A stretch of 64,000 nt of DNA, from assembly GCA_015069205.1 (NCBI GenBank), contig SVIZ01000011.1, positions 1 to 64,000 on the forward strand. Direction: 5' to 3'. The position numbers and the translations under genes were made by a program. A model generated the notes under the pieces. The model saw nothing but the letters and a program-made list of their open reading frames with translations. It searched no databases and had not been told where the DNA came from. Positions 6,972 through 19,048 of the stretch are shown here, in pieces. The stretch comes from Oscillospiraceae bacterium (lineage in GTDB: Bacteria; Bacillota; Clostridia; Saccharofermentanales; Saccharofermentanaceae). Positions within the stretch are counted from its first letter, which is position 1. Every line of letters starts with the position of its first letter.

Positions 6972-7277
6972 ATGACACTTCTTATTACGGTATTTGCGGC
7001 AGCCATTGCCACTATCTTCTGGTACAACACAAAATCAGACAGAAAACTCGGCACACTTGCCCTTATGTACTGGGGCGCAAGCCTTATGTGGCTCGTTGAC
7101 GCCGTAGTTGAATACATTGAACTTGGTGCAGAGTTCTTCGAGCAGGCTCCCGCAGACATGCTCAACGATGCATATCTCGGACTTTGCGTAGTCGCACTCG
7201 GCATGGTCATCTGGCTCGTTATCCTCATCGTTAAGGATCCTGAGGGCAAGGTCAAGGCAATGCTGGCAGCTAAATGA
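6972..7277 (+). CDS. Small membrane protein, second of a pair before larE
   Basis: A 101-residue protein with three likely membrane segments at about residues 2-17, 29-50 and 68-88. Acidic residues (VDAVVEYIELGAEFFE) lie between the second and third. Its stop codon overlaps the larE start (ATGA arrangement), which indicates translational coupling with the cofactor genes. I do not recognise the family. Because its neighbours make a nickel cofactor, a role in metal or substrate transport with the preceding membrane protein is a reasonable guess only. Confidence 0.8.
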   Translation: MTLLITVFAAAIATIFWYNTKSDRKLGTLALMYWGASLMWLVDAVVEYIELGAEFFEQAPADMLNDAYLGLCVVALGMVIWLVILIVKDPEGKVKAMLAAK

Positions 7278-8119
7278 TGGATAACGAAGCAGATATCAGA
7301 ATAAAAGAACAAGCGCTCACGGAGCGCATTAAGGCCGCCGGGAAACTGGCGGTCGCTTTTTCAGGCGGTGTCGATTCGACATATCTTGTATATAAGGCCC
7401 ACGAAGTTCTTGGCGACAACGCCATCGCCGTCACGATAAGATCCCAGGTCCTCATCAACGAAGATTTCGAATGGACTGTCGAGTTCTGTAAAAATATCGG
7501 CGTTAAGCAGGTAGTGATCGAGTGTGACGTTTTCGATTCCGAACAGTTCGAAAACAACCCGCCCGACAGATGTTATTACTGCAAGAAAATGGATTTCGAC
7601 GCAATTAAGAAAGCCGCTGCGGAATACGGGATCACCGAAGTTGCCGACGGCAGCAATGTAGACGATACGGGCGATTACAGACCCGGCATGCGTGCCATGA
7701 AAGAACTCGGGATAGTAAGCCCCCTCAAAGAATCCGGCCTTACCAAAAACGACATCCGCGCGCTTTCAAAGGAAGCGGATCTTCCCACCTGGGATAAGCC
7801 TGCCGCCGCATGCCTTGCATCCCGTTTTGTATATGGCGAGAAGATCACCACCGAAGGCCTGATCCGCGTTGCCAATGCCGAGAAGTTCATCAGAGACATG
7901 GGATTTCGCGGTATCCGTGTAAGAGTTCACGGCGATATCGCGAGGATCGAAGCTGCTCCGGATGACATTGAGCTTCTTACATACGGACGCACAAGAAAAG
8001 AAATATCCGATGAACTTAAGCGTTTGGGCTTCAAGTACGTAACTATCGACATTGACGGTTACCGTACAGGCAGCATGAACGAAGTGTTGAACATCAAAGA
8101 GGGTTCGTCAAATGAGTGA
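7274..8119 (+). CDS. larE: LarE, sulfur-insertion enzyme for the nickel-pincer cofactor
   Basis: A 281-residue ATP pyrophosphatase-type enzyme that adenylates the carboxylated pyridinium precursor and inserts sulfur, needed twice per cofactor. The PP-loop SGGVDSTYLVYK is at residues 30-41. The known sulfur-donor cysteine position corresponds to Cys180 in PAAACLASR. There is also a CxxC (Cys100, Cys103, in DRCYYCKK). In described LarE proteins the combination CxxC plus the late cysteine binds a [4Fe-4S] cluster that works catalytically, whereas the Lactiplantibacillus enzyme sacrifices its single cysteine. The gene overlaps the membrane gene upstream by 4 bases and larB downstream by 8 bases. 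Confidence 0.93.
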   Translation: MMDNEADIRIKEQALTERIKAAGKLAVAFSGGVDSTYLVYKAHEVLGDNAIAVTIRSQVLINEDFEWTVEFCKNIGVKQVVIECDVFDSEQFENNPPDRCYYCKKMDFDAIKKAAAEYGITEVADGSNVDDTGDYRPGMRAMKELGIVSPLKESGLTKNDIRALSKEADLPTWDKPAAACLASRFVYGEKITTEGLIRVANAEKFIRDMGFRGIRVRVHGDIARIEAAPDDIELLTYGRTRKEISDELKRLGFKYVTIDIDGYRTGSMNEVLNIKEGSSNE

Positions 8120-8852
8120 TGCAAGAGAGATCTTAGATAAGGTTGCAAGCGGCGAGATGACTCCCGAAGAGGCTGAGACTGCTTTAAAGATGAAGCCTTT
8201 TGTCGATCTCGGTTTTGCCAAGCCCGACCTTCACAGAGGCATAAGGCAGGGCATTCCGGAGGTCATCTTCGGCGAAGGCAAGACGCCTGAGCAGATAGAT
8301 AAGATCACGGAAAGTCTTCTTGAAGGCGGAGTCAAGACAGTGCTTATCACAAGACTTTCCCCTGAGAAGGCTGCTGAGCTTAAGACTTCCATCAAGTATT
8401 ACGATGTTGCCCGGATCGGCGCTGCAGGCATAATACCGGAGCCTTCTGCCAAAGGGACCATAGTGGTTGCCACAGGCGGAACATCCGATCTTCCCGTAGC
8501 TGAGGAAGCTGCCGTTACTGCAGAACTTCTGGGCAATAAGGTTACAAGGCTTTACGATGTCGGCGTTGCAGGTATCCACAGACTTCTGTCTCATACAGAA
8601 GAACTGATGGAAGCAAGTGTCGTTATAGCCATTGCCGGCATGGAAGGCGCACTTGCAAGTGTAATCGGAGGTCTTGTCGACTGCCCCGTCATCGCGGTTC
8701 CCACGAGCGTAGGATACGGCGCATCTTTTGATGGGCTCACTGCCTTGCTGGCCATGATGAACTCATGCGCAAGCGGCGTCACTGTAGTTAATATCGACAA
8801 CGGATTCGGTGCCGGCTATTCTGCCAGCATGATCAATCACATCGGAGGTTAA
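8112..8852 (+). CDS. larB: LarB, NaAD carboxylase/hydrolase of nickel-pincer cofactor synthesis
   Basis: A 246-residue protein that carboxylates and hydrolyses nicotinic acid adenine dinucleotide to the pyridinium dicarboxylate mononucleotide, the first step of nickel-pincer cofactor synthesis. The C-terminal two thirds resemble the PurE carboxylase fold (TGGTSDLPVAEEAA at about residue 120, LYDVGVAGIHR at ~150, IAGMEGALASVIGGL at ~178). The N-terminus has the family helix with ASGEMTPEEAE. Its length is normal. It overlaps larE by 8 bases, and larC follows after 4 bases, so the three enzymes are made from one message. Confidence 0.94.
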   Translation: MSDAREILDKVASGEMTPEEAETALKMKPFVDLGFAKPDLHRGIRQGIPEVIFGEGKTPEQIDKITESLLEGGVKTVLITRLSPEKAAELKTSIKYYDVARIGAAGIIPEPSAKGTIVVATGGTSDLPVAEEAAVTAELLGNKVTRLYDVGVAGIHRLLSHTEELMEASVVIAIAGMEGALASVIGGLVDCPVIAVPTSVGYGASFDGLTALLAMMNSCASGVTVVNIDNGFGAGYSASMINHIGG

Positions 8853-8856
8853 CCTG

Positions 8857-10116
8857 ATGAAGACTCTTTATATCGAATGCAATATGGGCGCAGCAGGCGA
8901 CATGCTCCTGGCATCTCTGGCTGAACTTACGGGCGACGTCAAGGCATGTGAAGAAAAGCTTAATTCATTGGGAATCCCCGATGTCACATATAACTTCGAG
9001 AAGTCCGTCAAATGCGGCATCAAAGGCACCCACGCACGTGTTGTCGCACTTGGCGTTGAAGAAGATGAGCACATGCATGAGCACCATCATGATCATGAGG
9101 AGCACGAACATTCACATGAGCACTCCCATGAACATTCTCATGACCACCATCACGAGCATACTCATGAAGAACATACTCACGATCATCATCATGATCACGA
9201 GGGCGAACACCATCACCATCATCACACCCACATGAGTGATATCGAGAACATCATCGGCGGCCTTAACGTTTCTGACAAGGTTAAGCAGGATGCCCTCGCT
9301 GTTTACGGCCTGATCGCCGAAGCTGAGAGCAAGGCTCACGGCAAAGAGATCTCAGAGATCCATTTCCACGAAGTCGGAACGATGGATGCGGTTGCAGATA
9401 TCGTAGGTGTCTGCGTTCTGTTAGAGCAGATCGGCGCTGACAGGATCGTCGTATCACCTCTTGCGACAGGCTACGGCCAGGTCAGATGCGCACACGGCAT
9501 CCTTCCGGTACCCGCACCTGCCACTGCAAGCATAATCGAAGGCATTCCCACATATAGCGGCAACGTTGAAGGAGAGCTCCTCACACCCACGGGCGCGGCG
9601 CTCCTCAAGCATTTTGCTGACAGCTTCGGTCAGAGACCGGTCATGGCGATAGAGAAGACCGGCTACGGCATGGGAAAGAAGGATTTTGCAAAGGCCAACA
9701 TGCTCAGGACCTTTATCGGAAGCTCGGAAGACGAAGGCGATAAGGTAATCGAGTTCAAGTTCAATGTCGATGACATGACCGGTGAAGAGATCGGCTATGC
9801 GACAGGCATTCTCATGCAGGAAGGCGCCCTTGACGTTTTCACGACGCCCATCGGCATGAAGAAAAACCGCCCGGGAATACTTTTCACGATGCTCATAAAG
9901 CCCGAAGACAAGGAAAAGTTCGCAAGACTTGTTTTCGAGAACACCACGACGATAGGTATCAGATATAACGAGATGGACAGGTTCAAGCTCGCAAGGCGCG
10001 AAGAAAAAGTCCTGACAAAATATGGGGAAGTCCGTGTCAAAGTAACCGAAGGATACGGCGTAATTAAGGCAAAACCCGAATATGATGACATATCGGCAAT
10101 AGCAAATCAGGAATAA
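8857..10116 (+). CDS. larC: LarC, nickel insertion enzyme, single uninterrupted frame with His-rich linker
   Basis: A 419-residue CTP-dependent nickel insertase that completes the nickel-pincer cofactor. The N-terminal part starts with CNMGAAGDMLLASL and contains HFHEVGTMDAVADIVG and TPTGAALLKHF. The C-terminal nickel-binding half has FNVDDMTGEEIGYATG. Between residues ~70 and 126 there is a block with more than 25 histidines alternating with E and D, likely to bind or store Ni2+. In Lactiplantibacillus the equivalent product needs a ribosomal frameshift between larC1 and larC2; here the frame is continuous. No larA racemase follows; the next gene is VanW-like. Confidence 0.94.
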   Translation: MKTLYIECNMGAAGDMLLASLAELTGDVKACEEKLNSLGIPDVTYNFEKSVKCGIKGTHARVVALGVEEDEHMHEHHHDHEEHEHSHEHSHEHSHDHHHEHTHEEHTHDHHHDHEGEHHHHHHTHMSDIENIIGGLNVSDKVKQDALAVYGLIAEAESKAHGKEISEIHFHEVGTMDAVADIVGVCVLLEQIGADRIVVSPLATGYGQVRCAHGILPVPAPATASIIEGIPTYSGNVEGELLTPTGAALLKHFADSFGQRPVMAIEKTGYGMGKKDFAKANMLRTFIGSSEDEGDKVIEFKFNVDDMTGEEIGYATGILMQEGALDVFTTPIGMKKNRPGILFTMLIKPEDKEKFARLVFENTTTIGIRYNEMDRFKLARREEKVLTKYGEVRVKVTEGYGVIKAKPEYDDISAIANQE

Positions 10117-10134
10117 TATCTATAATTTATACAG

Positions 10135-10163
10135 TTGAGATTTGAGAAAAGCATGTTTATTAT
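10135..10163 (+). promoter_or_regulatory. Promoter for the VanW-family gene
   Basis: TTGAGA (10135-10140), a 17-bp spacer and TATTAT (10158-10163) lie 53 bp before the ATG at 10216. I see no clear intrinsic terminator between larC and this promoter. Confidence 0.6.
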
Positions 10164-10215
10164 TGAGTGAAGATAAAACTAGCAATTTTCTTTAATAAAT
10201 AGGGGTAGCTACTAA

Positions 10216-12129
10216 ATGAAAAAGACAGCCGATCAGGCACATGAAAACATAAGACCTGCCGCAAGAGCCGGAAACTCAAACGCTCTGGCAAAGGTTGAGC
10301 GCAGAAAGATCGAAGAAGACAGTTCTTTTATTGACTTTTCCAAGGAAAAGCCGGTAAAGAAAGAGACAAAGCCGGCAGATATTCCGGTCAGGCACACCTC
10401 GGCTAAAGAGGGCCCCAAGAAGAAAAAGTCTGCATTGCCCGTAGTTTTTGCTGTTTTAGGCATTCTTGTCGTTGCAGGCGTTATCTTCGGAGTTCTTTAC
10501 TTCAAGAATCCCGGTGAAAATCCCATCGAGAAAGTTTTTGAAGCCCAGATCGAAGTAGTCATGGCAGACGGCACGGTTCAGACCATGAACGCAAATGCCG
10601 CATATGCAGAGCTTGCAACAGATAAGTTCTATCCCGGAACAGTAATCGACGGAGTTGACGTCGGCGGTATGACAAAGCAGGAAGCTTACGAAGCAGTCAT
10701 GAAGAAACTGCCTGCAAATCCTGTTACTGTCGCAATAAAGCTCGACCTCGAAGGAAAGATCCTTACTCCTGATTTCAAGGACGTAACCATTGAATACAAC
10801 ACTGCCGAGATCATTGACGAGGCTTTTGCAAAATACAGACCCGTCAGCGGAGAAGACCTTACGAATCTTGCAGAGTGCTATAACAGCGTCCAGAAGCTCA
10901 AGACCGAGAAGGAAACTTACGAGTCAACTTATACAGTCAAGGTAAACGGCGTAAAAGAAGCAGTTTCCGCTGCTCTCACTCCTTTTGTTGAAGAGTACGC
11001 AACGGTAAAGAACGCTTCCATCGTTGACTTCGATACTGAGACCAGGGAATTCGTCATCGACAAGGAAAAGACAGGTTATGAGATCAACATCGACGGCGCA
11101 GCAAAGGCAGTCGAAGATCTCTTCAGTAAAGGCACATACACAGGCACGGTAAAAGTTCCCACAGTTGTAAAAGAGCCTGAGATCACAGAGGCAATGATCA
11201 ACGAGAACTTCGGTCTGGTAGGTTCCGAGTGGACAGTTACAGATGGTAACTCCAACAGAAACAACAACATCAGCCAGGCATGCGACAACATCAACGGCAC
11301 GATCCTTGAGCCCGGCGAAGTTTTCTCTTTCAACGAAGTAGTTGGTCAGAGAACATACGAAAACGGCTTCCTTACTGCAACGGTCATTGCCGGCGGTCAG
11401 TACGAGCAGGGCCTCGGCGGCGGTATCTGCCAGGTCAGCACGACCCTTTACAACGCAGCTCTCAAGACAGACCTCGAGATCGTGGAGCGTCACAGCCACG
11501 CTTGGCCGTCCGACTATATCTCACCCGGACTTGATGCTACAGTTGACTGGCCTGCATTGGATCTCAAGTTCAAGAATGACACTGATTACCAGATCGTTAT
11601 CTTAGCCTGGTGGGATCCTTCAGATTACACATGCAATGCAGAGATCTACGGCAGGAAGCTCCCTGAAGGCAAGTCCATCGAGACACGTGCAGAGATCGTC
11701 AGCAGAACTCCCGCAGGCGATACGGAGTATGTCGCAGATCCGAGCCTTTCAGTCGGCGAGACAAAGACACTCCGCAACTCTCACGACGGCATTACAGCTT
11801 ATGCTTACAAGGTCTGGTCCGATGCTGACGGCAACGAGATCGACCGCGTATATTACAATTCCACATACTATAATTCATACGGAGCGCGTATCGCGGTAGG
11901 TACTCTGAAACCAGACGGAACATATGCTTCCATTGATACGAGCACAGGTGAATACTTAGAGCCGATCAATACACCGGAACCTACTCCGGACACGACGACA
12001 CCGGAACCTACACCGGATACGACGACGCCTGAGCCGACTCCGGAGATCACACCGCCACCTGAAAATACCGGAACTCCAGAATCACCGGAAAACACAGGAA
12101 CACCTGAGACACCGGAAATTACCCCATAG
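10216..12129 (+). CDS. VanW family cell-wall protein with PT-rich C-terminal tail
   Basis: A 637-residue membrane-anchored protein. Residues 1-75 are cytoplasmic, charged and low-complexity. A single membrane segment spans ~76-97 (LPVVFAVLGILVVAGVIFGV). Residues ~120-330 resemble the putative peptidoglycan-binding domain that precedes VanW, beginning GTVIDGVDVGGMTKQEA. The VanW domain spans ~345-480 with GQRTYENGFL and GGGICQVSTTLYNA. A beta-rich (possibly G5-like) region follows. The last ~50 residues are repeats of PEPTPDTTT and similar units, typical of a wall-spanning spacer. VanW proteins are linked to glycopeptide resistance clusters by name, but their activity is not settled; no other van gene is near. 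Confidence 0.87.
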   Translation: MKKTADQAHENIRPAARAGNSNALAKVERRKIEEDSSFIDFSKEKPVKKETKPADIPVRHTSAKEGPKKKKSALPVVFAVLGILVVAGVIFGVLYFKNPGENPIEKVFEAQIEVVMADGTVQTMNANAAYAELATDKFYPGTVIDGVDVGGMTKQEAYEAVMKKLPANPVTVAIKLDLEGKILTPDFKDVTIEYNTAEIIDEAFAKYRPVSGEDLTNLAECYNSVQKLKTEKETYESTYTVKVNGVKEAVSAALTPFVEEYATVKNASIVDFDTETREFVIDKEKTGYEINIDGAAKAVEDLFSKGTYTGTVKVPTVVKEPEITEAMINENFGLVGSEWTVTDGNSNRNNNISQACDNINGTILEPGEVFSFNEVVGQRTYENGFLTATVIAGGQYEQGLGGGICQVSTTLYNAALKTDLEIVERHSHAWPSDYISPGLDATVDWPALDLKFKNDTDYQIVILAWWDPSDYTCNAEIYGRKLPEGKSIETRAEIVSRTPAGDTEYVADPSLSVGETKTLRNSHDGITAYAYKVWSDADGNEIDRVYYNSTYYNSYGARIAVGTLKPDGTYASIDTSTGEYLEPINTPEPTPDTTTPEPTPDTTTPEPTPEITPPPENTGTPESPENTGTPETPEITP

Positions 12130-12156
12130 GATTTGACGGATAATTAATCAGAAACA

Positions 12157-12190
12157 AAAAGCTCCCGGGAAAGGACTTCCGGGAGCTTTT
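12157..12190. terminator. Bidirectional intrinsic terminator
   Basis: AAAAGCTCCCGG (12157-12168) pairs perfectly with CCGGGAGCTTTT (12179-12190) around a 10-nt loop. With A-runs on one side and T-runs on the other it can stop transcription from the VanW gene and from the minus-strand lipoprotein gene. Confidence 0.85.
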
Positions 12191-12241
12191 CTATTGATTA
12201 ATTAATAACGAAAGAATATCTTCTGTTATTTTATTTAATCC

Positions 12242-13321
12242 TTATACTTCTTTAATGAAGACCATGCCTTCTGCGATATTCTCGTTGTATTCTTCCCAGG
12301 TTACACCGTTGTAGCTGAATACGAAGACACCCTTGTCATTTGTATATTCGACTGTCTCAGTCTCAGGTTCGCCTTCTTCTGTGTATGTGAATACCTTCTT
12401 TGTTCCGTTTTCATAGCTGATAGTCTCTGTGGCGGGATCGTACTTGCCGCACATTGACCAGACTGCCTTTGAGTTGTGAGATGCTGTCCAGATTACCCAG
12501 ATCTGTACGTTTTCGGGATCTTCGGAATCTACTTCAACAGTTACTCTGCCGCTCTTGTATTCGCCGTTGATGTCTGCTGCTGTCTTGGGAGCGGGTTCCG
12601 TAACTTCAACTGAAGGCTGTGTAGCTGCGGGCTCAGTAGGAGCGGCTGCTGTTTCAGTGGGCTTTGCTTCAGTCTCAGAAGGCTTTTCGGTGGGCTTAGG
12701 AGTAGGAGTTGCTGTAGGTTTATTTGTAGGCTTAGGTGTGGGGGTTGCTGTGGGCTCAGAAGGGATTGTCTCGACTACGTCTCCGGGGAAGATCGTTGTG
12801 CATACGTCCTCAACTGAATCGCCGAATCTGAAGACCATTGTGTCTGCCATGTGCTCTTCCAGATCATTCCATGTAACTCCGTCATAGCTGAATACGAATT
12901 CGCCTCTGCCGCTTGTGTAAAGGTACTCTTCGAAAATGACTTCGCCCTTCTCGTTAAGTGTGATCATCTTCTTGATTGCGTTATCGTAGAATACGCTTGT
13001 TGTAGCTTCATTGAAGGTGCCGCTCATTGTCCAGACTGCCTTTGTGTTGTAGCTGTCGCCCCATACTACGGTGATCTCTGCTTCATCAGAACCTTTTGCC
13101 TCAACGCTGACGCAGGCTCTTCCGCCGTAGTAATTGCCGATAAAGTTCATTACGGGATTCTGGCCGTCGTCAGGAGCTATGGTCTCTTTGGCGATTGTCT
13201 CTCTGAACTGGGGCTGTGCTGCTGCCTTTGCCGTGTTCTTCTTTGTTGCGCAGGCTGCGACTGCTATTGCCGTTGCGAGTACTGCTGTGGTACCGAGTAT
13301 TACGTATAAATACTTTTTCAT
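12242..13321 (-). CDS. Lipoprotein with two copies of one domain joined by a PT-rich linker
   Basis: A 359-residue predicted lipoprotein of unknown function. The start is taken at ATG 13321, 8 bases after AAAGGA, not at an ATG 51 bases further upstream. The signal segment ends in AVAAC (lipobox). Two homologous ~105-residue domains follow. The first contains GNYYGGRACVSVEAKG, KAVWTMSGTF and FVFSYDGVTWNDLEEHMAD; the second contains GEYKSGRVTVEVD, KAVWSMCGKY and FVFSYNGVTWEEYNENIAE. Between them lies a ~75-residue linker rich in PTPKPT and TEAKPTE units. The internal duplication is clear by eye. The domain is unknown to me; an extracellular binding role is plausible. Confidence 0.82.
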   Translation of the reverse strand: MKKYLYVILGTTAVLATAIAVAACATKKNTAKAAAQPQFRETIAKETIAPDDGQNPVMNFIGNYYGGRACVSVEAKGSDEAEITVVWGDSYNTKAVWTMSGTFNEATTSVFYDNAIKKMITLNEKGEVIFEEYLYTSGRGEFVFSYDGVTWNDLEEHMADTMVFRFGDSVEDVCTTIFPGDVVETIPSEPTATPTPKPTNKPTATPTPKPTEKPSETEAKPTETAAAPTEPAATQPSVEVTEPAPKTAADINGEYKSGRVTVEVDSEDPENVQIWVIWTASHNSKAVWSMCGKYDPATETISYENGTKKVFTYTEEGEPETETVEYTNDKGVFVFSYNGVTWEEYNENIAEGMVFIKEV

Positions 13322-13525
13322 TTTATTTGTCCTTTCTTGTTTGCCTTCCGGCTTTTTGTTTGATGGCTTCATTTAAACATCTGCCAAAAGTGCTAACAAT
13401 GAGCAATGAACAGGCCTTCCGTCGATTAAGCAACAGTCTTTATCTGATGTGTTGCCGATCGCGAAAAAAATCCTTCTGTCGACAGTCTGAAAAGCAGGCA
13501 GCCAAAAAAAATTTTAATAATCCTA

Positions 13526-13554
13526 TTGACAAGGTGGGTTTAACCGATTATCAT
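13526..13554 (+). promoter_or_regulatory. Promoter of the leader peptide-metY-cysK unit
   Basis: A consensus TTGACA (13526-13531), a 17-bp spacer and TATCAT (13549-13554) would start transcription near 13561, about 30 nt before the leader peptide ATG at 13591 and 170 nt before metY. The upstream stretch 13322-13525 holds no other feature that I can support. Confidence 0.75.
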
Positions 13555-13590
13555 ATGCAAAAATTCATTGAAGAGAGGAGGACGGGAGTT

Positions 13591-13707
13591 ATGTACGACC
13601 GCAAGTTCTATTTTCAGACATTAGTCCGTAATAACTTCCGTTGTGGACGAATGTGTTGTTCTTGTTCAAACAGCCGCTGTTCCGACAGCACAACTATAAC
13701 TATTTGA
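13591..13707 (+). CDS. Cysteine-rich leader peptide upstream of metY
   Basis: A 38-codon reading frame with a perfect AGGAGG (13576-13581) 9 bases before its ATG. Its sequence starts MYDRKFYFQTLVRNNF and then has five cysteines within 13 residues (C18, C22, C23, C25 and C30, in RCGRMCCSCSNSRC). All five use the codon TGT. It ends at TGA 13707, 23 bases before the metY ATG. Cys codons clustered near the end of a short frame in front of cysteine-synthesis genes are what a cysteine-responsive attenuator would look like. A hairpin GCTGT-TCCG-ACAGC (13676-13689) lies just after the cysteine codons. No T-tract follows, so control may be by translational coupling or Rho. The frame is open further upstream (through the promoter), but ATG 13591 has the only good ribosome binding site. 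Confidence 0.72.
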   Translation: MYDRKFYFQTLVRNNFRCGRMCCSCSNSRCSDSTTITI

Positions 13708-13730
13708 ATTAAGAAAGGAAAAACACAATT

Positions 13731-15011
13731 ATGTCCAACTATAAATTTGAAACTCTTCAGCTCCACGTAGGCCAGGAGCAGGCCGATCCTGCATCAGACG
13801 CACGCGCAGTACCGATTTACCAGACAACTTCATACGTATTCCATAACTCAGCACACGCAGAGGCAAGATTCAACCTCTCAGATGCAGGTAACGTATATGG
13901 AAGAATCACAAACTCCACACAGGGCGTTTTCGAAGACAGGATCGCAGCACTTGAAGGCGGCGTTGCAGGTCTTGCAGTAGCTTCCGGTGCATCAGCGATC
14001 ACTTACACCATCCTGGGTCTCGCAGTTAAGGGCGAGCACATCGTAGCCCAGAAGACGATCTACGGCGGTTCAGAGAACCTTCTCGCAAACACACTCCCTC
14101 TTTATGGTATTGATACAACATTGGTTAATATCCATGATCTGGACGAGGTAAAGGCTGCCATCAAGCCCAACACAAAGGCTCTCTACATCGAGACACTCGG
14201 TAACCCTTCTTCAGATATCCCGGATATCGAAGCTCTCGCTAAGATCGCTCACGAGGCAGGCATCCCGCTCGTTATCGACAACACATTCGGTACACCTTAC
14301 CTCATCAGACCTATCGAGTACGGCGCTGATATCGTAGTTCACTCAGCTACAAAGTTCATCGGCGGTCACGGCACAACATTGGGCGGTGTTATCGTTGATT
14401 CGGGTAACTTCGACTGGGCAGCTTCCGGCAAGTATCCCTGGCTCTCAGAACCCAACCCCAGCTATCATGGAATCAAGTTCACAGAGGCAGTCGGCAAGCC
14501 CGCTTTCGCTATCTATGTCAGAACAGTTCTTTTGAGAGACACAGGTGCAGCTATCTCACCTTTCGCTGCATTCCTTCTCCTTCAGGGTACAGAGACATTG
14601 TCTTTGAGAGTTGAGCGTCACGTTGAGAATACAAATAAGGTATTGGAATTCCTTGTAAATCATCCGAAGGTTGCAAAGGTAAACCATCCTTCACTTGCAG
14701 ATCACCCCGATCACGAATTGTTTAAGAAGTATTTCCCCAATGGCGGCGGTTCCATCTTCACATTCGATGTTAAGGGCGGCAAGGAAGAAGCATTCAAGTT
14801 TATCGATAACCTGAAGATCTTCTCACTCCTCGCAAACGTTGCAGATGTTAAGAGCCTTGTAATCCATCCGGCAAGCACAACACATTCACAGCTTTCCGAA
14901 GAGGATCTCGACAGCATCGGCATCCATCAGAGCACGATCCGTCTCTCCATCGGTACAGAGCACATCGATGACATCATCGCTGACCTCGAGAACGGTTTCG
15001 CAGCAATCTGA
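13731..15011 (+). CDS. metY: O-acetylhomoserine aminocarboxypropyltransferase (MetY family)
   Basis: A 426-residue PLP enzyme of the Cys/Met metabolism family. It would convert O-acetylhomoserine and sulfide (or methanethiol) to homocysteine (or methionine). Family signatures include the N-terminal FETLQLHVGQEQ, the YGRITNSTQGVFE block, IDNTFGTPYLIRPIEYGAD and the PLP lysine in HSATKFIGGHGTTLGG (residue ~207). The length of ~426 and the extended C-terminus match O-acetylhomoserine sulfhydrylases rather than shorter cystathionine gamma-synthases. It lies in one transcription unit with a cysteine-rich leader peptide and cysK. Confidence 0.93.
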   Translation: MSNYKFETLQLHVGQEQADPASDARAVPIYQTTSYVFHNSAHAEARFNLSDAGNVYGRITNSTQGVFEDRIAALEGGVAGLAVASGASAITYTILGLAVKGEHIVAQKTIYGGSENLLANTLPLYGIDTTLVNIHDLDEVKAAIKPNTKALYIETLGNPSSDIPDIEALAKIAHEAGIPLVIDNTFGTPYLIRPIEYGADIVVHSATKFIGGHGTTLGGVIVDSGNFDWAASGKYPWLSEPNPSYHGIKFTEAVGKPAFAIYVRTVLLRDTGAAISPFAAFLLLQGTETLSLRVERHVENTNKVLEFLVNHPKVAKVNHPSLADHPDHELFKKYFPNGGGSIFTFDVKGGKEEAFKFIDNLKIFSLLANVADVKSLVIHPASTTHSQLSEEDLDSIGIHQSTIRLSIGTEHIDDIIADLENGFAAI

Positions 15012-15065
15012 TTTCCAAATTAAGCGATATAATACTATTTAGCAGTTACAACAGGAGGACTATCT

Positions 15066-15998
15066 ATGTCTAAGGTTTATACGTCAGCAGACCAGCTTAT
15101 CGGCAAAACACCGCTTCTTGAGCTCACGCATCTCGAAAAGTCTTTGGGACTCGAAGCAAAGCTCGTTGCAAAGCTTGAATATTTCAATCCCGCAGGAAGC
15201 GTTAAGGACCGTATTGCCAAGGCCATCATCGAGGATGCTGAGGCTTCCGGCAGACTTAAGGAAGGCAGCGTCATCATCGAGCCTACAAGCGGAAACACAG
15301 GTATCGGTCTTGCATCCGTTGCAGCTGCTAAAGGATATCGTCTTATCATCACAATGCCTGAGACGATGAGCGTTGAGAGAAGACAGCTTATCAAGGCATA
15401 CGGCGCTGAGCTCGTCCTCACAGAGGGCGCTAAGGGAATGAAGGGCGCAATCGCAAAGGCTGAGGAACTCCAGAAGGAAATCCCTAACAGCATCATTGCA
15501 GGCCAGTTCATCAACCCCGCAAATCCTAAGGCTCACAAAGAGACGACAGGTCCTGAAATCTGGGAAGACACAGACGGCGAAGTTGATATCTTCGTTGCAG
15601 GTGTAGGTACAGGCGGAACAGTTACCGGCGTAGGCGAATACCTGAAGTCACAGAAGGCTTCCGTTAAGGTTGTAGCTGTTGAGCCTGCTGATTCTCCCGT
15701 TCTGAGTAAGGGTACTGCAGGTAGCCACAAGATCCAGGGTATCGGTGCAGGCTTCGTACCTGAAGTTCTCAACACAAGCGTTTACGATGAGGTTATTCCC
15801 GTTACTAACGACGATGCTTTCGCAACAGGCAAGCTCCTGGGCAAGAACGAAGGTGTCCTCGTAGGAATCTCTTCAGGTGCGGCTCTCTGGGCAGCAATCG
15901 AACTCGCTAAGCGTCCCGAGAACAAGGGCAAGACGATCGTAGCTTTGCTCCCTGATACAGGCGACAGATATCTCTCAACACCTCTTTTCGCTGATTAA
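15066..15998 (+). CDS. cysK: Cysteine synthase A (O-acetylserine sulfhydrylase)
   Basis: A 310-residue PLP-dependent beta-replacement enzyme forming cysteine from O-acetylserine and sulfide. The PLP lysine is in [11 protein letters not shown] (residue ~43), the substrate-binding loop is SGNTGIGL (~70-77), and the phosphate-binding loop is [10 protein letters not shown] (~180). The C-terminal [10 protein letters not shown] is typical. Its length is normal. A good AGGAGG precedes the ATG. It follows metY after 54 bp and is closed by an intrinsic terminator at 16038-16070, making a two-enzyme sulfide-assimilation operon. Confidence 0.95.
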
Positions 15999-16037
15999 TA
16001 GTTGGACGAAAGATAAAAAACTTACATATGCCTCAAT

Positions 16038-16070
16038 CACCCGTTGTCTTTAAGATGGCGGGTGTTTTTA
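16038..16070 (+). terminator. Intrinsic terminator after cysK
   Basis: CACCCG (16038-16043) pairs with CGGGTG (16059-16064), with weaker inner pairing, followed by GTTTTTA. It lies 40 bp after the cysK stop. Confidence 0.75.
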
Positions 16071-16081
16071 TGTTTATGCCC

Positions 16082-16153
16082 GGAGTCCGCAAAAAGGACT
16101 CCTCAAGTATAAAAATCCGGAAATCTTATACTTGGGGACCCGGTTTTCCGGGG
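16082..16153. other. Three tandem hairpins in the cysK/aldo-keto reductase gap
   Basis: Three perfect stems follow one another: GGAGTCC/GGACTCC (16082-16088 with 16096-16102), CAAGTATAA/TTATACTTG (16104-16112 with 16126-16134) and CCCGG/CCGGG (16139-16143 with 16148-16152). AGTATAAAAA recurs at 16106-16115 and 16159-16168. No T-tract follows, so this is not a simple terminator. It may be a structured RNA or a repeat element. Its function is unknown. Confidence 0.6.
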
Positions 16154-16275
16154 TGCGGAGTATAAAAAGGTAAAACCTAAAATTCACAAAATAAGCGGCA
16201 ATCAGACAGAAGTATGTATAATCCCTTTGCTATAATCCAAATATCTTTATCTGAAATTAGTCAGGAGGTGCTGTT

Positions 16276-17403
16276 ATGAGCGTAAATATCAACGAGATGC
16301 CCAAGATCGGATTCGGTCTTATGAGACTTCCGGAGAATGATGGTGTAATAGATATCGACAAGGTCAGCAAGATGGCCGATGCGTATCTTGAAGCAGGCTT
16401 CAACTATTTCGACACCGCATATGTTTATCACGGCGGCAACTCCGAGAAGGCCGTCAAGGAAGCGATTGTCAAGAGACATCCGAGAGAGTCTTTTACACTC
16501 GCTACAAAGCTTCCGGCATGGTTCATTCATTCAGAGGAAGACAGGGATAAGATCTTCAATGAGCAGCTCGAAAGATGCGGCGTTGATTATTTCGATTACT
16601 ATCTCCTGCACAGCATTGAAGACGGCAACAACTACGACACATACGTAAAATACGACTGCTTTAACTGGGGTATTCAGAAGAAGGCTGAAGGCAAGATCCG
16701 TCATTTCGGATTCTCATATCACGGAACACCCGAACTGCTCGTAAAGATCCTCGACAGTCATCCTGAGGTCGAGTTCGTTCAGATCCAGCTCAACTATATC
16801 GACTGGGATAACTCCATCGTTCATTCAGGCGAGCTCTATAAGATCCTCGCTGAGAGAAATATTCCGATCATCGTCATGGAACCCTGCAAGGGTGGTAAGC
16901 TCGCAAACCTTGATGAAGAATGTTCTGCAATCCTGAAGAACATCCGTCCGGACAAGTCAATGGCTTCATGGGCATTCAGATTTGTCGGCAGCCTTCCCGG
17001 AGTTGCAACGATCTTAAGCGGTATGTCCACAGAAGATCAGATGGCTGATAACATGAATACCTTTAAGAATTTCGAGCCTCTGACAGATGAGGACAAGAAG
17101 GCGATCGACGAAGTTGTTGAAGCTATGTCCCGTGTTGAACTGATCGGCTGTACGGCATGTAAGTATTGCGTTGAAGGTTGTCCTGCAGGTATCAGCATTC
17201 CCGATGTTATCAGTGCGATCAATACAGCCAGAAAATTCCCGGGTGACATGAGACCTCAGTTTTTCTACAACGGTCTGGTTGACAGATACAGCCATGCCTC
17301 AGACTGTATCGGATGCGGCCAGTGCGAAGGCGTATGCCCGCAGCATCTTCCTATCATCGAGATCCTTAAGGAAGCCGTCGAAAAGTTTGAAGCCAAGGGC
17401 TGA
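16276..17403 (+). CDS. Aldo/keto reductase with C-terminal [4Fe-4S] ferredoxin-like domain
   Basis: A 375-residue oxidoreductase. Residues ~8-280 form an aldo/keto reductase barrel (IGFGLMRLPENDG, catalytic-type D48/Y53 region FNYFDTAYVYHGG, LLHSIEDG). The C-terminus adds two cysteine clusters, CTACKYCVEGCPAGI (residues ~295-309) and CIGCGQCEGVCPQHL (~337-351), that should hold two [4Fe-4S] clusters. This architecture is common in anaerobes; substrates are not known. The ATG follows AGGAGGTG. It stands alone, with the bidirectional terminator at 17431-17474 behind it. Confidence 0.92.
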   Translation: MSVNINEMPKIGFGLMRLPENDGVIDIDKVSKMADAYLEAGFNYFDTAYVYHGGNSEKAVKEAIVKRHPRESFTLATKLPAWFIHSEEDRDKIFNEQLERCGVDYFDYYLLHSIEDGNNYDTYVKYDCFNWGIQKKAEGKIRHFGFSYHGTPELLVKILDSHPEVEFVQIQLNYIDWDNSIVHSGELYKILAERNIPIIVMEPCKGGKLANLDEECSAILKNIRPDKSMASWAFRFVGSLPGVATILSGMSTEDQMADNMNTFKNFEPLTDEDKKAIDEVVEAMSRVELIGCTACKYCVEGCPAGISIPDVISAINTARKFPGDMRPQFFYNGLVDRYSHASDCIGCGQCEGVCPQHLPIIEILKEAVEKFEAKG

Positions 17404-17430
17404 TCAGGATACTAATCAAACAGTAAATTT

Positions 17431-17474
17431 AAAAACCGTCCGGTTCCTTTGTGAGGTTCCGGACGGTATTTTTA
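17431..17474. terminator. Bidirectional intrinsic terminator
   Basis: ACCGTCCGG (17435-17443) pairs perfectly with CCGGACGGT (17459-17467), flanked by AAAAA on the left and TATTTTT on the right. It serves the aldo/keto reductase gene and the convergent hydrolase gene. Confidence 0.88.
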
Positions 17475-17488
17475 TGAAACGTTATTTA

Positions 17489-19048
17489 TCAGAGTGACAG
17501 CGACTTAAGGTATGCCTTAACGTCAGCGGCAAATTCATGAGGGTGGTCGCCCTGAACGTTGTGATTTCCGCCCGGGATCAGGATGTAATCCGCGCCGATC
17601 ATCTCAGCATATTCGATCATGACCTCATGTGAGCATGACCAGTCGTCGGAACCTGAGATGAAATAGACCGGAACCTCATAACTTGTCTGTGCCGTAAGGT
17701 CTGCGTTAAGACAGGTGTCGACAAGTTTGCCCTGAAGATTCATTACTTCTTCCTCACTCATTGTGGCCGTGTACCAGAGAAGATCGTCAGTGCCTAAATA
17801 AGGTGATTCCAAAGCGCCCAGGATGACCTGCGAAAAGTCCGGATACGGGTGATACTGCATCGCGAGATTGGAGACTTCGTTGGAGTTTTCATACGAAGGA
17901 TCATTTAAGTATTTCTCATAGGCTTCTTTCATTGCCGTAGTATCTTCGCCTGCAGCTTCTGCTATGGCAAGAGCGTCTTCATATTCGGATGTGGTGGAGA
18001 GCCTGTCGTTTACGAACTGGCCGACACCGATGTATGCCGCAACCTTTTCGGGATGGTCGTAAACATATGTAGCGCCGAGGATCGAGCCGTAAGAGTGGCC
18101 GATGATTATGATCTTGTCCTGGCCGAATCTGTCCAGCAGGTAGTCGGTGAGCACGTCAACGTCATCCAATGCCTGTTCGAAAGATACAGTCGCGTTGGAT
18201 TTGTCGTCGTTGGCGACATATGTTCTTCCGCAGCCGCGCTGGTCCCAGCAGACGAATGTGTAGTCGTCGATAAGGTCGTTTGAAAAAAGATAAGATACGT
18301 AAGAGTCAGGACTTAACGGACCGCCGTGAAGGTAAAGGATGACCGGGTTGTCCTTGCTCTTGCCGCGGATGGTGATGAACTGCTTCATTCCGTTGATATC
18401 AACATAAGTCTGCTCATCAACGCCCTTGAACGGATTGATGAAGTTGGAAAGATAATTGTAGTTTCTCTTTGCGATGTAGAAGATCGATGTTGCGGTAACT
18501 ATGATGAGCGGGATCGCGATCACGATCTGGAGCATTCCGACAAGTACCCTGGTGCCGGTCTTTTTCGGAGGTTCGTAGCCTGCTTCGCTTCTGTGCGCGA
18601 GATGGATACCGATGTGGCCGGTGCCGAGTATCAGTGACGAGATGACGATAAAGAGATTTGATGCGTAGATTCCGAGAAGGAACATGGCGATTACGGGAAG
18701 CGTTGCACCTGCAACGGGGAATCCCGCAAAAGAGGAGTACATGTCTGCCATGGTCTTCTTGCTTCTGAAATACTTAAGCCAGTATAACTCATAAAGGACC
18801 ATGCAGAGGAAGGATGCGATGAGCCAGCCGATCCACCAGGATCCGGGTCTTACATTAGTATCTTTGGTGATGAGAATCAGGCATGAGACGAGCACCTCGC
18901 CTGCGCGCTCTAAAAACAGCAGGATCCTGTTCTCGTTCTTTGCATATTCCTCATATCCTTCAGGTTTGTTTTTCGCCCAGATGATATTGGGGATAAACAG
19001 CATGGCAAGATATATCAGTCCGACATACGAAAATCCGAAATTGATCAT
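17489..19048 (-). CDS. Membrane protein with C-terminal alpha/beta hydrolase domain
   Basis: A 519-residue protein. The ATG at 19048 is preferred because GGAG lies 7 bases before it; an upstream in-frame start has no ribosome binding site. The N-terminal ~215 residues hold about six membrane helices. The rest is an alpha/beta hydrolase of the prolyl-aminopeptidase type: oxyanion HGGPL at about residue 267, CWDQRGCGRTY at ~293, nucleophile elbow GHSYGS at ~340, and the C-terminal GSDDWSC and GGNHNVQG carrying the likely Asp and His. The hydrolase should face the outside or the membrane surface. The substrate is unknown. The fusion of a multi-helix membrane part to this hydrolase is uncommon. 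Confidence 0.85.
   Translation of the reverse strand: MINFGFSYVGLIYLAMLFIPNIIWAKNKPEGYEEYAKNENRILLFLERAGEVLVSCLILITKDTNVRPGSWWIGWLIASFLCMVLYELYWLKYFRSKKTMADMYSSFAGFPVAGATLPVIAMFLLGIYASNLFIVISSLILGTGHIGIHLAHRSEAGYEPPKKTGTRVLVGMLQIVIAIPLIIVTATSIFYIAKRNYNYLSNFINPFKGVDEQTYVDINGMKQFITIRGKSKDNPVILYLHGGPLSPDSYVSYLFSNDLIDDYTFVCWDQRGCGRTYVANDDKSNATVSFEQALDDVDVLTDYLLDRFGQDKIIIIGHSYGSILGATYVYDHPEKVAAYIGVGQFVNDRLSTTSEYEDALAIAEAAGEDTTAMKEAYEKYLNDPSYENSNEVSNLAMQYHPYPDFSQVILGALESPYLGTDDLLWYTATMSEEEVMNLQGKLVDTCLNADLTAQTSYEVPVYFISGSDDWSCSHEVMIEYAEMIGADYILIPGGNHNVQGDHPHEFAADVKAYLKSLSL

What the first reader, a model, noticed from the sequence alone, without database searches (positions are those of the whole stretch)
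13526..13730. Cysteine-rich leader peptide as a probable cysteine attenuator for metY-cysK
Directly seen: a consensus promoter, then a perfect AGGAGG and a 38-codon frame with five TGT cysteine codons within 13 residues, ending 23 bp before the O-acetylhomoserine sulfhydrylase start. Established: amino-acid-rich leader peptides control the matching biosynthetic genes, and cysteine-rich upstream frames control sulfur genes in mycobacteria. Inference: ribosome stalling at Cys codons when cysteine is scarce changes access to metY. Because no intrinsic terminator follows, the mechanism may be translational coupling or Rho-dependent rather than classical attenuation. Clostridial examples are not known to me.
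Basis: partly seen in the sequence, partly recalled or inferred. Interest (0 to 1): 0.82.

Follow-up and report, generated by a model that had tools for sequence, protein, structure and literature searches.

The report
Rare-codon pause switch for sulfur genes
Many Clostridia carry, just ahead of a gene for making sulfur amino acids, a tiny gene holding the rare arginine codon CGA followed by a methionine codon, and this pair is predicted to make the ribosome pause when methionine or cysteine is short, which would switch the sulfur gene on.

Summary
In detail: promoter-like site, AGGAGG, a 38-codon frame with five TGT codons, 23 nt before metY; the peptide recurs in 20 of 115 family genomes. 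The cysteine-attenuator reading is only partly right. The part shared with relatives across Clostridia is the codon pair CGA-AUG (Arg-Met), often within N[FY]RxGRM; 34 of 194 leader frames have no Cys codon. Upstream of 59 metY loci picked by metY alone, CGAATG occurs in 29 (expected 4.6), in frame in a short SD-led ORF in 27; other Arg codons before ATG are not enriched. CGA is also preferred before later Cys codons (36 of 51, against 49 of 424 other Arg codons). The genome shows no tRNA with anticodon TCG. In the window's clade the pause and Cys codons are predicted to pair with the metY ribosome site; a parked ribosome opens it in 15 of 15 sequences, but not in five other genus leaders. Some relatives couple the pair to an antiterminator and terminator. 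Best reading: a sulfur-amino-acid leader whose sensor is a CGA-potentiated Met/Cys codon. Pausing and direction are predicted, unmeasured.

The parts
13517..13542 (+). imperfect inverted repeat around the -35 box, a possible operator (Rrf2/CymR-like by recalled resemblance)
   Evidence: read; similar CCTA-TTGACA-TAGG repeats upstream of other leaders read by eye; not tested
13526..13554 (+). promoter-like TTGACA-17-TATCAT
   Evidence: 11 of 12 matches
13576..13581 (+). leader ribosome binding site AGGAGG
13591..13707 (+). leader ORF, 38 codons, MYDRKFYFQTLVRNNFRCGRMCCSCSNSRCSDSTTITI
13633..13653 (+). conserved core codons N-F-R-C-G-R-M
13648..13653 (+). CGA-AUG codon pair, the proposed pause site
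13654..13665 (+). codons 22-25 (TGT TGT TCT TGT); predicted to belong to the arm that pairs with the metY ribosome site
13645..13670 (+). 5' arm of predicted sequestering hairpin
13676..13689 (+). inner hairpin GCTGT-TCCG-ACAGC
13703..13736 (+). 3' arm of the hairpin: spans the leader stop, the metY ribosome site (13713-13719) and the metY start codon
13731..15011 (+). metY, O-acetylhomoserine aminocarboxypropyltransferase/cysteine synthase
   Evidence: TIGR01326 above cut-off
15066..15998 (+). cysK, cysteine synthase A
   Evidence: TIGR01139 above cut-off

Best explanation
The 38-codon frame before metY-cysK is one of a wide set of clostridial leader ORFs that share the codon pair CGA-AUG, and it likely works as a translational attenuator in which a ribosome predicted to pause at CGA-AUG when methionine or cysteine is scarce would uncover the metY ribosome binding site. 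Shown by sequence: the leader ORF and its conservation, CGA as the Arg codon before Met in leaders, its preference before later Cys codons, the absence of a tRNA with anticodon TCG among those found, and an AUG-to-metY spacing that does not follow the length of the leader tail. Predicted by folding: a hairpin in the window's clade whose 5' arm is the pause site plus Cys codons and whose 3' arm is the metY ribosome site and start codon, opened if a ribosome sits at CGA-AUG. Inferred: CGA is read through an inosine-adenosine wobble, this wobble in the P site slows decoding of the following Met or Cys codon, the pause becomes long when charged Met- or Cys-tRNA is low, and metY-cysK then rises. 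The conserved peptide N[FY]RxG may add to the pause. In some relatives the same pair is coupled to an antiterminator and terminator instead.
For: Codon: in 391 class genomes searched for N-[FY]-R-F-G-R-M with free Arg and Gly codons, 14 of 20 matches lie in leader ORFs and all 14 use CGA; the other 6 are not leaders. 59 metY upstreams picked by metY alone: CGAATG in 29 against 4.6 expected, 27 in frame; in-frame CGT-ATG 2, CGG-ATG 1; other Arg-ATG strings at or below expectation (the two sets overlap). Arg before Cys downstream of the pair: CGA 36 of 51 against 49 of 424 other Arg codons; among 106 representatives 19 of 25 against 24 of 260. CGA is 0 of 58 Arg codons in five genes of the window. 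tRNA-Arg anticodons found: ACG, CCG, TCT, CCT, no TCG, in a genome listed as 98.64% complete. Regulon: 105 of 131 leaders from the two pattern scans have metY within 350 nt; of ten of the 24 others, four precede NlpA lipoproteins, one an ABC ATPase with NIL domain, two transport permeases. Output: hairpin z -2.78, 1 of 200 shuffles as stable; two compensatory pairs in 27; ribosome-site openness 0.00-0.35 free and 0.38-0.70 with a parked ribosome in 15 of 15 clade sequences. Spacing: AUG-to-metY does not grow with tail length, slope 0.13 +- 0.07, 132 leaders. Literature, passages seen: CGA is translated slower than CGU and CGC by the same tRNAs in Salmonella (PMC4046918); [quoted passage not shown]
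Against: No ribosome occupancy, expression or starvation data. The hairpin belongs to the window's clade: in 5 other leaders of the genus the metY site is not or hardly sequestered (L022, L023, L025 unchanged, L027 0.55 to 0.59, L024 0.38 to 0.56), and for leaders with a gap of 80 nt or less the RNA from +12 on is less structured than shuffles (103 loci, mean z +0.38). Over 93 short-gap leaders listed as other, a parked ribosome raises openness from 0.40 to 0.60, but blocking the middle of the gap gives 0.54. The covariation term of the clade alignment is unfavourable (+0.5). A ribosome at the leader stop also opens the site (0.25-0.98), so plain coupling is not excluded. 16 of 84 family metY loci and 32 of 59 class loci show no such leader. 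One leader has CGA-GTG (L025). The conserved N, [FY], R, G of the peptide is not explained by codon reading. Direction and signal are inferred.
Confidence: 0.5

Rival explanations
1. Nascent-chain arrest peptide: the peptide N[FY]RxGRM stalls the ribosome near the end of the frame, perhaps with a sulfur ligand (methionine, S-adenosylmethionine, cysteine) as co-factor, TnaC-like; CGA is an accessory.
For: N, [FY], R, G, R, M conserved while third positions of N, F and the first R vary, so the peptide is selected; at 48 of 199 Arg-Met sites the next codon is a stop (45 TGA, 3 TAA).
Against: Divergent leaders keep CGA-AUG without NFRxG (for example MKANIQRRYCRM, MEHTKFYFNRCCLSFSLLLNIDRM); a peptide model does not predict CGA over CGU or CGC, nor CGA before later Cys codons.
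Confidence: 0.25
2. Cysteine attenuator: tandem Cys codons are the sensor.
For: All five Cys codons are kept as TGT in 15 of 16 38-aa leaders of the window clade; many relatives are Cys-rich; mycobacteria have Cys-codon attenuators (reference and passages seen in PMC9094748).
Confidence: 0.12
3. Simple translational coupling: the leader ribosome delivers itself to metY by reinitiation, without sensing anything.
For: Stop is 22-23 nt before metY in 17 of 20 clade loci; a ribosome at the stop opens the metY site.
Against: Stop-to-start distance runs from -37 to +82 among 112 short leaders while AUG-to-start does not follow tail length; does not explain CGA.
Confidence: 0.08
4. Sequence-specific RNA site (CGAAUG) bound or cut by a factor, independent of translation.
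For: The hexamer is constant at nucleotide level in leaders (where it was also the search key).
Against: 27 of 29 occurrences are in frame in short ORFs with a ribosome site, where a third or fewer would be expected.
Confidence: 0.05

Closest known systems
Polycysteine leaderless sORF attenuators of mycobacteria (Canestrari 2020, seen only as a reference and in passages of PMC9094748)
   Same: small frame with Cys codons before operons, reported as cysteine-responsive attenuators
   Different: here a ribosome-site-led frame, Cys codons optional, CGA-AUG shared, Clostridia, hairpin or antiterminator output
ermC-type translational attenuation (recalled; mentioned in a PMC2965389 passage)
   Same: a ribosome parked in a leader frame predicted to free a sequestered downstream ribosome site
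   Different: no drug; the predicted signal is sulfur amino acid supply
trp/his-type transcription attenuators (recalled); a his leader in Firmicutes is reported in PMC2965389 (passages)
   Same: type C relatives have a leader frame with mutually exclusive antiterminator and terminator
   Different: a single CGA-preceded Met codon in many leaders rather than a run of regulatory codons; no terminator in the window
TnaC/SecM/MifM-type arrest peptides (recalled; related papers seen as listings)
   Same: short conserved peptide ending near the proposed stall
   Different: a fixed codon as well as fixed residues; divergent members lack the peptide motif
S-box (SAM) riboswitches and T-boxes (recalled as controls of methionine and cysteine genes in Firmicutes)
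   Same: control the same kind of genes
   Different: no Rfam match in 60 metY upstreams, 40 without and 20 with the leader

Membership tests
Mycobacterial polycysteine leaderless attenuators | leaderless start (ATG at the 5' end of the RNA) | tested here: not met
   AGGAGG at 13576-13581 and a promoter-like site whose -10 box ends 36 nt before the ATG; the transcript start itself is not measured
Mycobacterial polycysteine leaderless attenuators | Cys codons in all members | tested here: not met
   present in the window, but 34 of 194 related leader frames have none
ermC-type translational attenuator | downstream ribosome site paired with sequence under the paused ribosome | tested here: met
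   predicted by folding in the window clade, 15 of 15 sequences, z -2.78; not met in L022, L023, L025, L027 and weak in L024
ermC-type translational attenuator | ribosome pause under the inducing condition | not testable with these tools
   needs ribosome profiling or toeprinting
trp/his-type transcription attenuator | intrinsic terminator after the leader frame | tested here: not met
   none in 13400-13800; terminator-like stretches in the 14 aligned type C relatives, ten of them picked for that
trp/his-type transcription attenuator | run of regulatory codons for the end product | tested here: inconclusive
   window has Cys-Cys-Ser-Cys after CGA-AUG; 34 of 194 leader frames have no Cys
Arrest peptide | residue-level conservation independent of codon choice | tested here: inconclusive
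   N, [FY], R, G conserved with varying third positions, but the last Arg is CGA in 14 of 14 leaders found with free codons
SAM riboswitch or T-box | Rfam covariance match | tested here: not met
   window 10000-18000 at E <= 1 gave no such family; 0 matches in 60 other metY upstreams at gathering scores

The most novel reading that the evidence does not exclude
Clostridia run a lineage-wide sulfur regulon through a codon-pair sensor: CGA, readable only by an inosine-adenosine wobble, is placed in the P site to make the next Met or Cys codon hypersensitive to tRNA charging, and this one module is plugged into different outputs (ribosome-site hairpins, antiterminators, plain spacers) before metY, methionine importers and related genes.
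Probability: 0.42. Interest if true: 0.87.

Novelty: new variant of a known kind. Interest (0 to 1): 0.74.

Why it matters
If true, a single rare codon is a working part of a natural sensor rather than a nuisance, which makes the question of what inosine-adenosine decoding does in cells testable with one synonymous change. It would also be a regulatory element shared by metY and methionine-import genes across many clostridial families, at genes where 60 of 60 upstream regions tested showed no SAM riboswitch or T-box, and it gives a simple sequence rule for finding further leaders in gut and rumen genomes.

Tried and rejected
Thiolated tRNA idea: 2-thiocytidine at position 32 of tRNA-Arg(ICG) is recalled to restrict CGA decoding, which would link sulfur status to CGA. 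The tRNA has C32, but of three PF01171 matches in the genome one is a strong 513-aa frame (taken for TilS, not checked further), one the LarE-like frame in the window and one a GMP-synthase-like frame (names recalled). No TtcA-like protein was seen, so the idea is dropped for this organism.

Riboswitch or T-box: no match. Protein family: no NCBIfam or Pfam match for five leader peptides. Strings RFGRM, FRFGRM, NFRFGRMC, YRFGRM in papers: three irrelevant hits.

RNA structure over the metY ribosome site as a general rule: not general; kept for the window clade. One search starts 12 nt after the C of CGA and so leaves the pause site out; the middle group (81-120 nt, 23 loci) had mean z -0.15. 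In one search the segment upstream of the pair was more complementary to the ribosome site, relative to its shuffles, than the one downstream (z -0.72 against -0.40).

Type B leaders (CFSC...RM with a terminator): pairing of TGCTTCTC with the terminator arm was seen by eye in the output and not tested; no common structure was apparent. Type C single folds gave the antiterminator helix in 6 of 7; L049 folded into the alternative with the terminator.

The strict RCGRM class scan found only the own genus; it was too narrow and is replaced. Three matches without a start codon (among them L131, Lentisphaerae, and L170) were dropped; L181 (Listeria cornellensis, not before a sulfur gene, possibly chance) is counted among its 131 leaders. 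The 194 frames include at least one probable non-leader (L252).

Rows dropped or not fetched: L092 (no metY start located); L320 (truncated); family metY of G010, G014, G016 and G017 (fragments) and of G004, G100, G104, G111, G112 and G114; among class loci G144 and G224. In L287 and L296 no metY start was located and a nominal one was used.

Full report
What is in the window. One search shows TTGACA-17-TATCAT (13526-13554), AGGAGG (13576-13581), a 38-codon frame (13591-13707) and metY at 13731, followed by cysK at 15066. metY and cysK match TIGR01326 and TIGR01139 above their cut-offs. There is no terminator-like site between 13400 and 13800; six Rfam matches at E <= 1 in 10000-18000 all lie at 12148-12314 on the other strand, below their gathering scores.

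The same leader in close relatives. A six-frame search of 115 genomes of the family finds the peptide at E <= 1.9e-11 in 20 genomes including the own one; metY lies in all 20 fetched loci. In the 16 of these 20 loci with a 38-aa frame that I compared, codons 15-23 are identical in all, synonymous sites included, while several of codons 4-13 carry synonymous changes. One genome has an in-frame tandem copy of NFRCGRMCCSCSNS (L020). Four further genus members have a frame ending in NYRCGRM, NYRCGRMC or NYRCGRV, and one MLQYIIRHNYRNGRMCRSCCRIS.

Following it outward. metY at E <= 1e-120 is present in 95 of 115 family genomes. I oriented 84 metY upstream regions; 68 have a frame with CGA-ATG (one CGA-GTG) and 16 have none (the frames were found by looking for CGA[AG]TG). 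Peptides fall into three shapes: A, N[FY]RxGRM; B, Cys/Met-rich ending in RM at or near the stop; C, [CM]RM[LFP]xSRA...RC. They share Arg-Met written CGA-ATG. An order-wide pattern scan finds type A in 50 of 188 genomes with no match to the reversed control. Of 131 leaders read from these and from the class scan, 105 have metY within 350 nt; 24 do not, one of which has it at 431 nt, and the rest are cut by contig ends. Of ten proteins downstream of these 24, four are NlpA lipoproteins (MetQ type, by recall), one an ABC ATPase with NIL domain (MetN type, by recall), two transport permeases, one of the phosphomethylpyrimidine-kinase family, one ThiF-like, one URO-D.

The codon. Two tests do not presuppose CGA. 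First, N-[FY]-R-F-G-R-M with free Arg and Gly codons in 391 class genomes gives 20 matches; 14 lie in leader frames and all 14 use CGA, while the other six are not leaders and read CGG, AGG, AGT, AGG, AGA and once CGA at that place. Second, of 216 class genomes 111 have metY at E <= 1e-130; I fetched upstream regions of 60 of the 62 best loci outside the family, of which 59 were usable, from 58 genomes. CGAATG is present in 29 of 59 against 4.6 expected from first-order resampling of the same regions; 27 are in frame in a short SD-led frame, three of them with GTG starts; in-frame CGT-ATG occurs twice and CGG-ATG once (binomial 4e-17 and 7e-17). The two sets overlap. Several peptides there are unlike type A (MKANIQRRYCRM, MGECYIFRMCLCCCGK, MEHTKFYFNRCCLSFSLLLNIDRM), so the codon pair outlasts the peptide. 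A third test uses positions that no search selected: Arg directly before Cys downstream of the pair is CGA in 36 of 51 cases, other Arg (not before Met or Cys) in 49 of 424 (Fisher 4e-19; 19 of 25 against 24 of 260 among representatives). The count of CGA before Met over all leaders (181 of 185) is inflated by selection and is not used as evidence. Background: besides type A, two CGA-ATG frames of this kind occur outside long ORFs in about 1.9 Mb of summed strands, and one of them (L193, 6418+) is itself a type C leader before what reads as an amino-acid ABC transporter operon. Sequences are related and partly the same species in two releases, so the P values are guides.

Who reads CGA. Fifty-one tRNA matches were found in the own genome. 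The Arg anticodons are ACG, CCG, TCT and CCT, with no TCG, so CGA is presumably read by the ACG anticodon, inosine after editing (inferred). CGA is 0 of 58 Arg codons in five genes of the window. In Salmonella, CGA is translated slower than CGU and CGC by the same tRNAs (PMC4046918, passages); [quoted passage not shown] These are analogies, not tests in Clostridia.

Output in the window clade. The 96 nt from the pause site to the start of metY fold at -22.4 kcal/mol, z -2.78, 1 of 200 shuffles as stable. GGACG, AAU and GUGUU of the pause site pair with the metY start region and UUCUU of the Cys codons with AGGAA of the metY ribosome site. In 11 distinct clade sequences the consensus has 27 pairs, two with changes on both sides, though the covariation term is unfavourable (+0.5). 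L015 changes TCT-TGT to TCC-TTT, losing a Cys, along with a changed ribosome-site region, and its site stays closed (0.00). Ribosome-site openness is 0.00-0.35 free, 0.38-0.70 with a ribosome parked at CGA-AUG, 0.25-0.98 with one at the leader stop, and 0.31-0.57 when the 18 nt after the pair are shuffled (15 sequences). In five other genus leaders there is little or no sequestration (same call).

Output elsewhere. Leaders with at most 80 nt between AUG and metY are not structured from +12 on (103 loci, mean z +0.38); 81-120 nt gives -0.15 (23 loci) and more than 120 nt -1.61 (49 loci). Over 93 leaders listed as other with a gap of at most 90 nt, a parked ribosome raises openness from 0.40 to 0.60 and blocking the middle of the gap to 0.54; for 58 with longer gaps the values are 0.44, 0.55 and 0.46 (at least one member of the window clade under another locus name, L190, is in these sets). 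This is a weak general effect. The AUG-to-metY distance hardly depends on tail length (slope 0.13 +- 0.07, P 0.07, 132 leaders with distance up to 130 nt; medians 64.5, 64.5, 70 and 77 for rising tail length); the cut at 130 and kinship limit this. In type C, a script found ten leaders with an arm 9-12 nt after the C of CGA that pairs with an arm just before a terminator-like stretch; I added four by eye and aligned 14. With arms that I set by hand, the main helix is 97.9% standard and three of its pairs change on both sides; the two smaller helices are 50% and 76%. Cells changed on both sides (10) exceed all 500 shuffles, but the number of pairs so changed (4, reached by 74 of 500) and of pair types (9, reached by 409) do not. 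Since ten were picked for complementary arms, the percentage leans upward. A ribosome at CGA-AUG would sit just short of that arm (inferred from the recalled footprint), so the helix could form ahead of it.

How it most likely works. A leading ribosome meets CGA-AUG. With ample Met- and Cys-tRNA it passes; with little it pauses. In the window clade the paused ribosome holds the hairpin open and metY is translated. In type C the pause would favour the antiterminator. All dynamic steps and the direction are inferred. The peptide motif probably contributes, and the nascent-chain rival is the most serious one. Confidence 0.5 in the whole chain; about 0.9, as a judgement, that CGA-AUG leaders are a real regulatory family.

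Novelty. NCBIfam and Pfam have no match for five leader peptides and Rfam none for the upstream regions tested. Searches of the held open-access library (listings and starts of abstracts seen) showed no description of such a leader; subscription papers and preprints are not covered. Leader peptides and attenuators are a known kind, hence a new variant.

Noticed in passing
window 7274-10116: Three consecutive frames resembling the nickel-pincer genes larE, larB and larC (names recalled; the first matches PF01171 weakly) lie shortly before the metY region.
   Followed up: no
window 13517-13542: Imperfect inverted repeat overlapping the -35 box, with similar repeats upstream of other leaders, possibly an Rrf2/CymR-type operator, so the operon may have a second, transcriptional control.
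   Followed up: no
L193 6418-6530 and L200 1558-1722: A second CGA-AUG leader with a type C attenuator on contigs that also carry a metY leader; in L193 it precedes what reads as an amino-acid ABC transporter.
   Followed up: partly
L020 (same as L183): In-frame tandem duplication of NFRCGRMCCSCSNS inside the leader, giving two CGA-AUG pairs.
   Followed up: no
L270, L273, L274, L288, L312: In these metY loci without the leader the frame directly upstream looks NifU-like (first three) or Rrf2-like (last two), read, names by recall.
   Followed up: no
L035-L041, L053, L062-L065: Type B leaders: Cys/Met-rich frames ending in RM at or near the stop, with CFSC codons that look complementary to the 5' arm of a following terminator.
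   Followed up: partly
L153 (Treponema MAG), L137 (Erysipelatoclostridium): Type A leaders outside the usual clostridial families; horizontal transfer or mis-binning.
   Followed up: no
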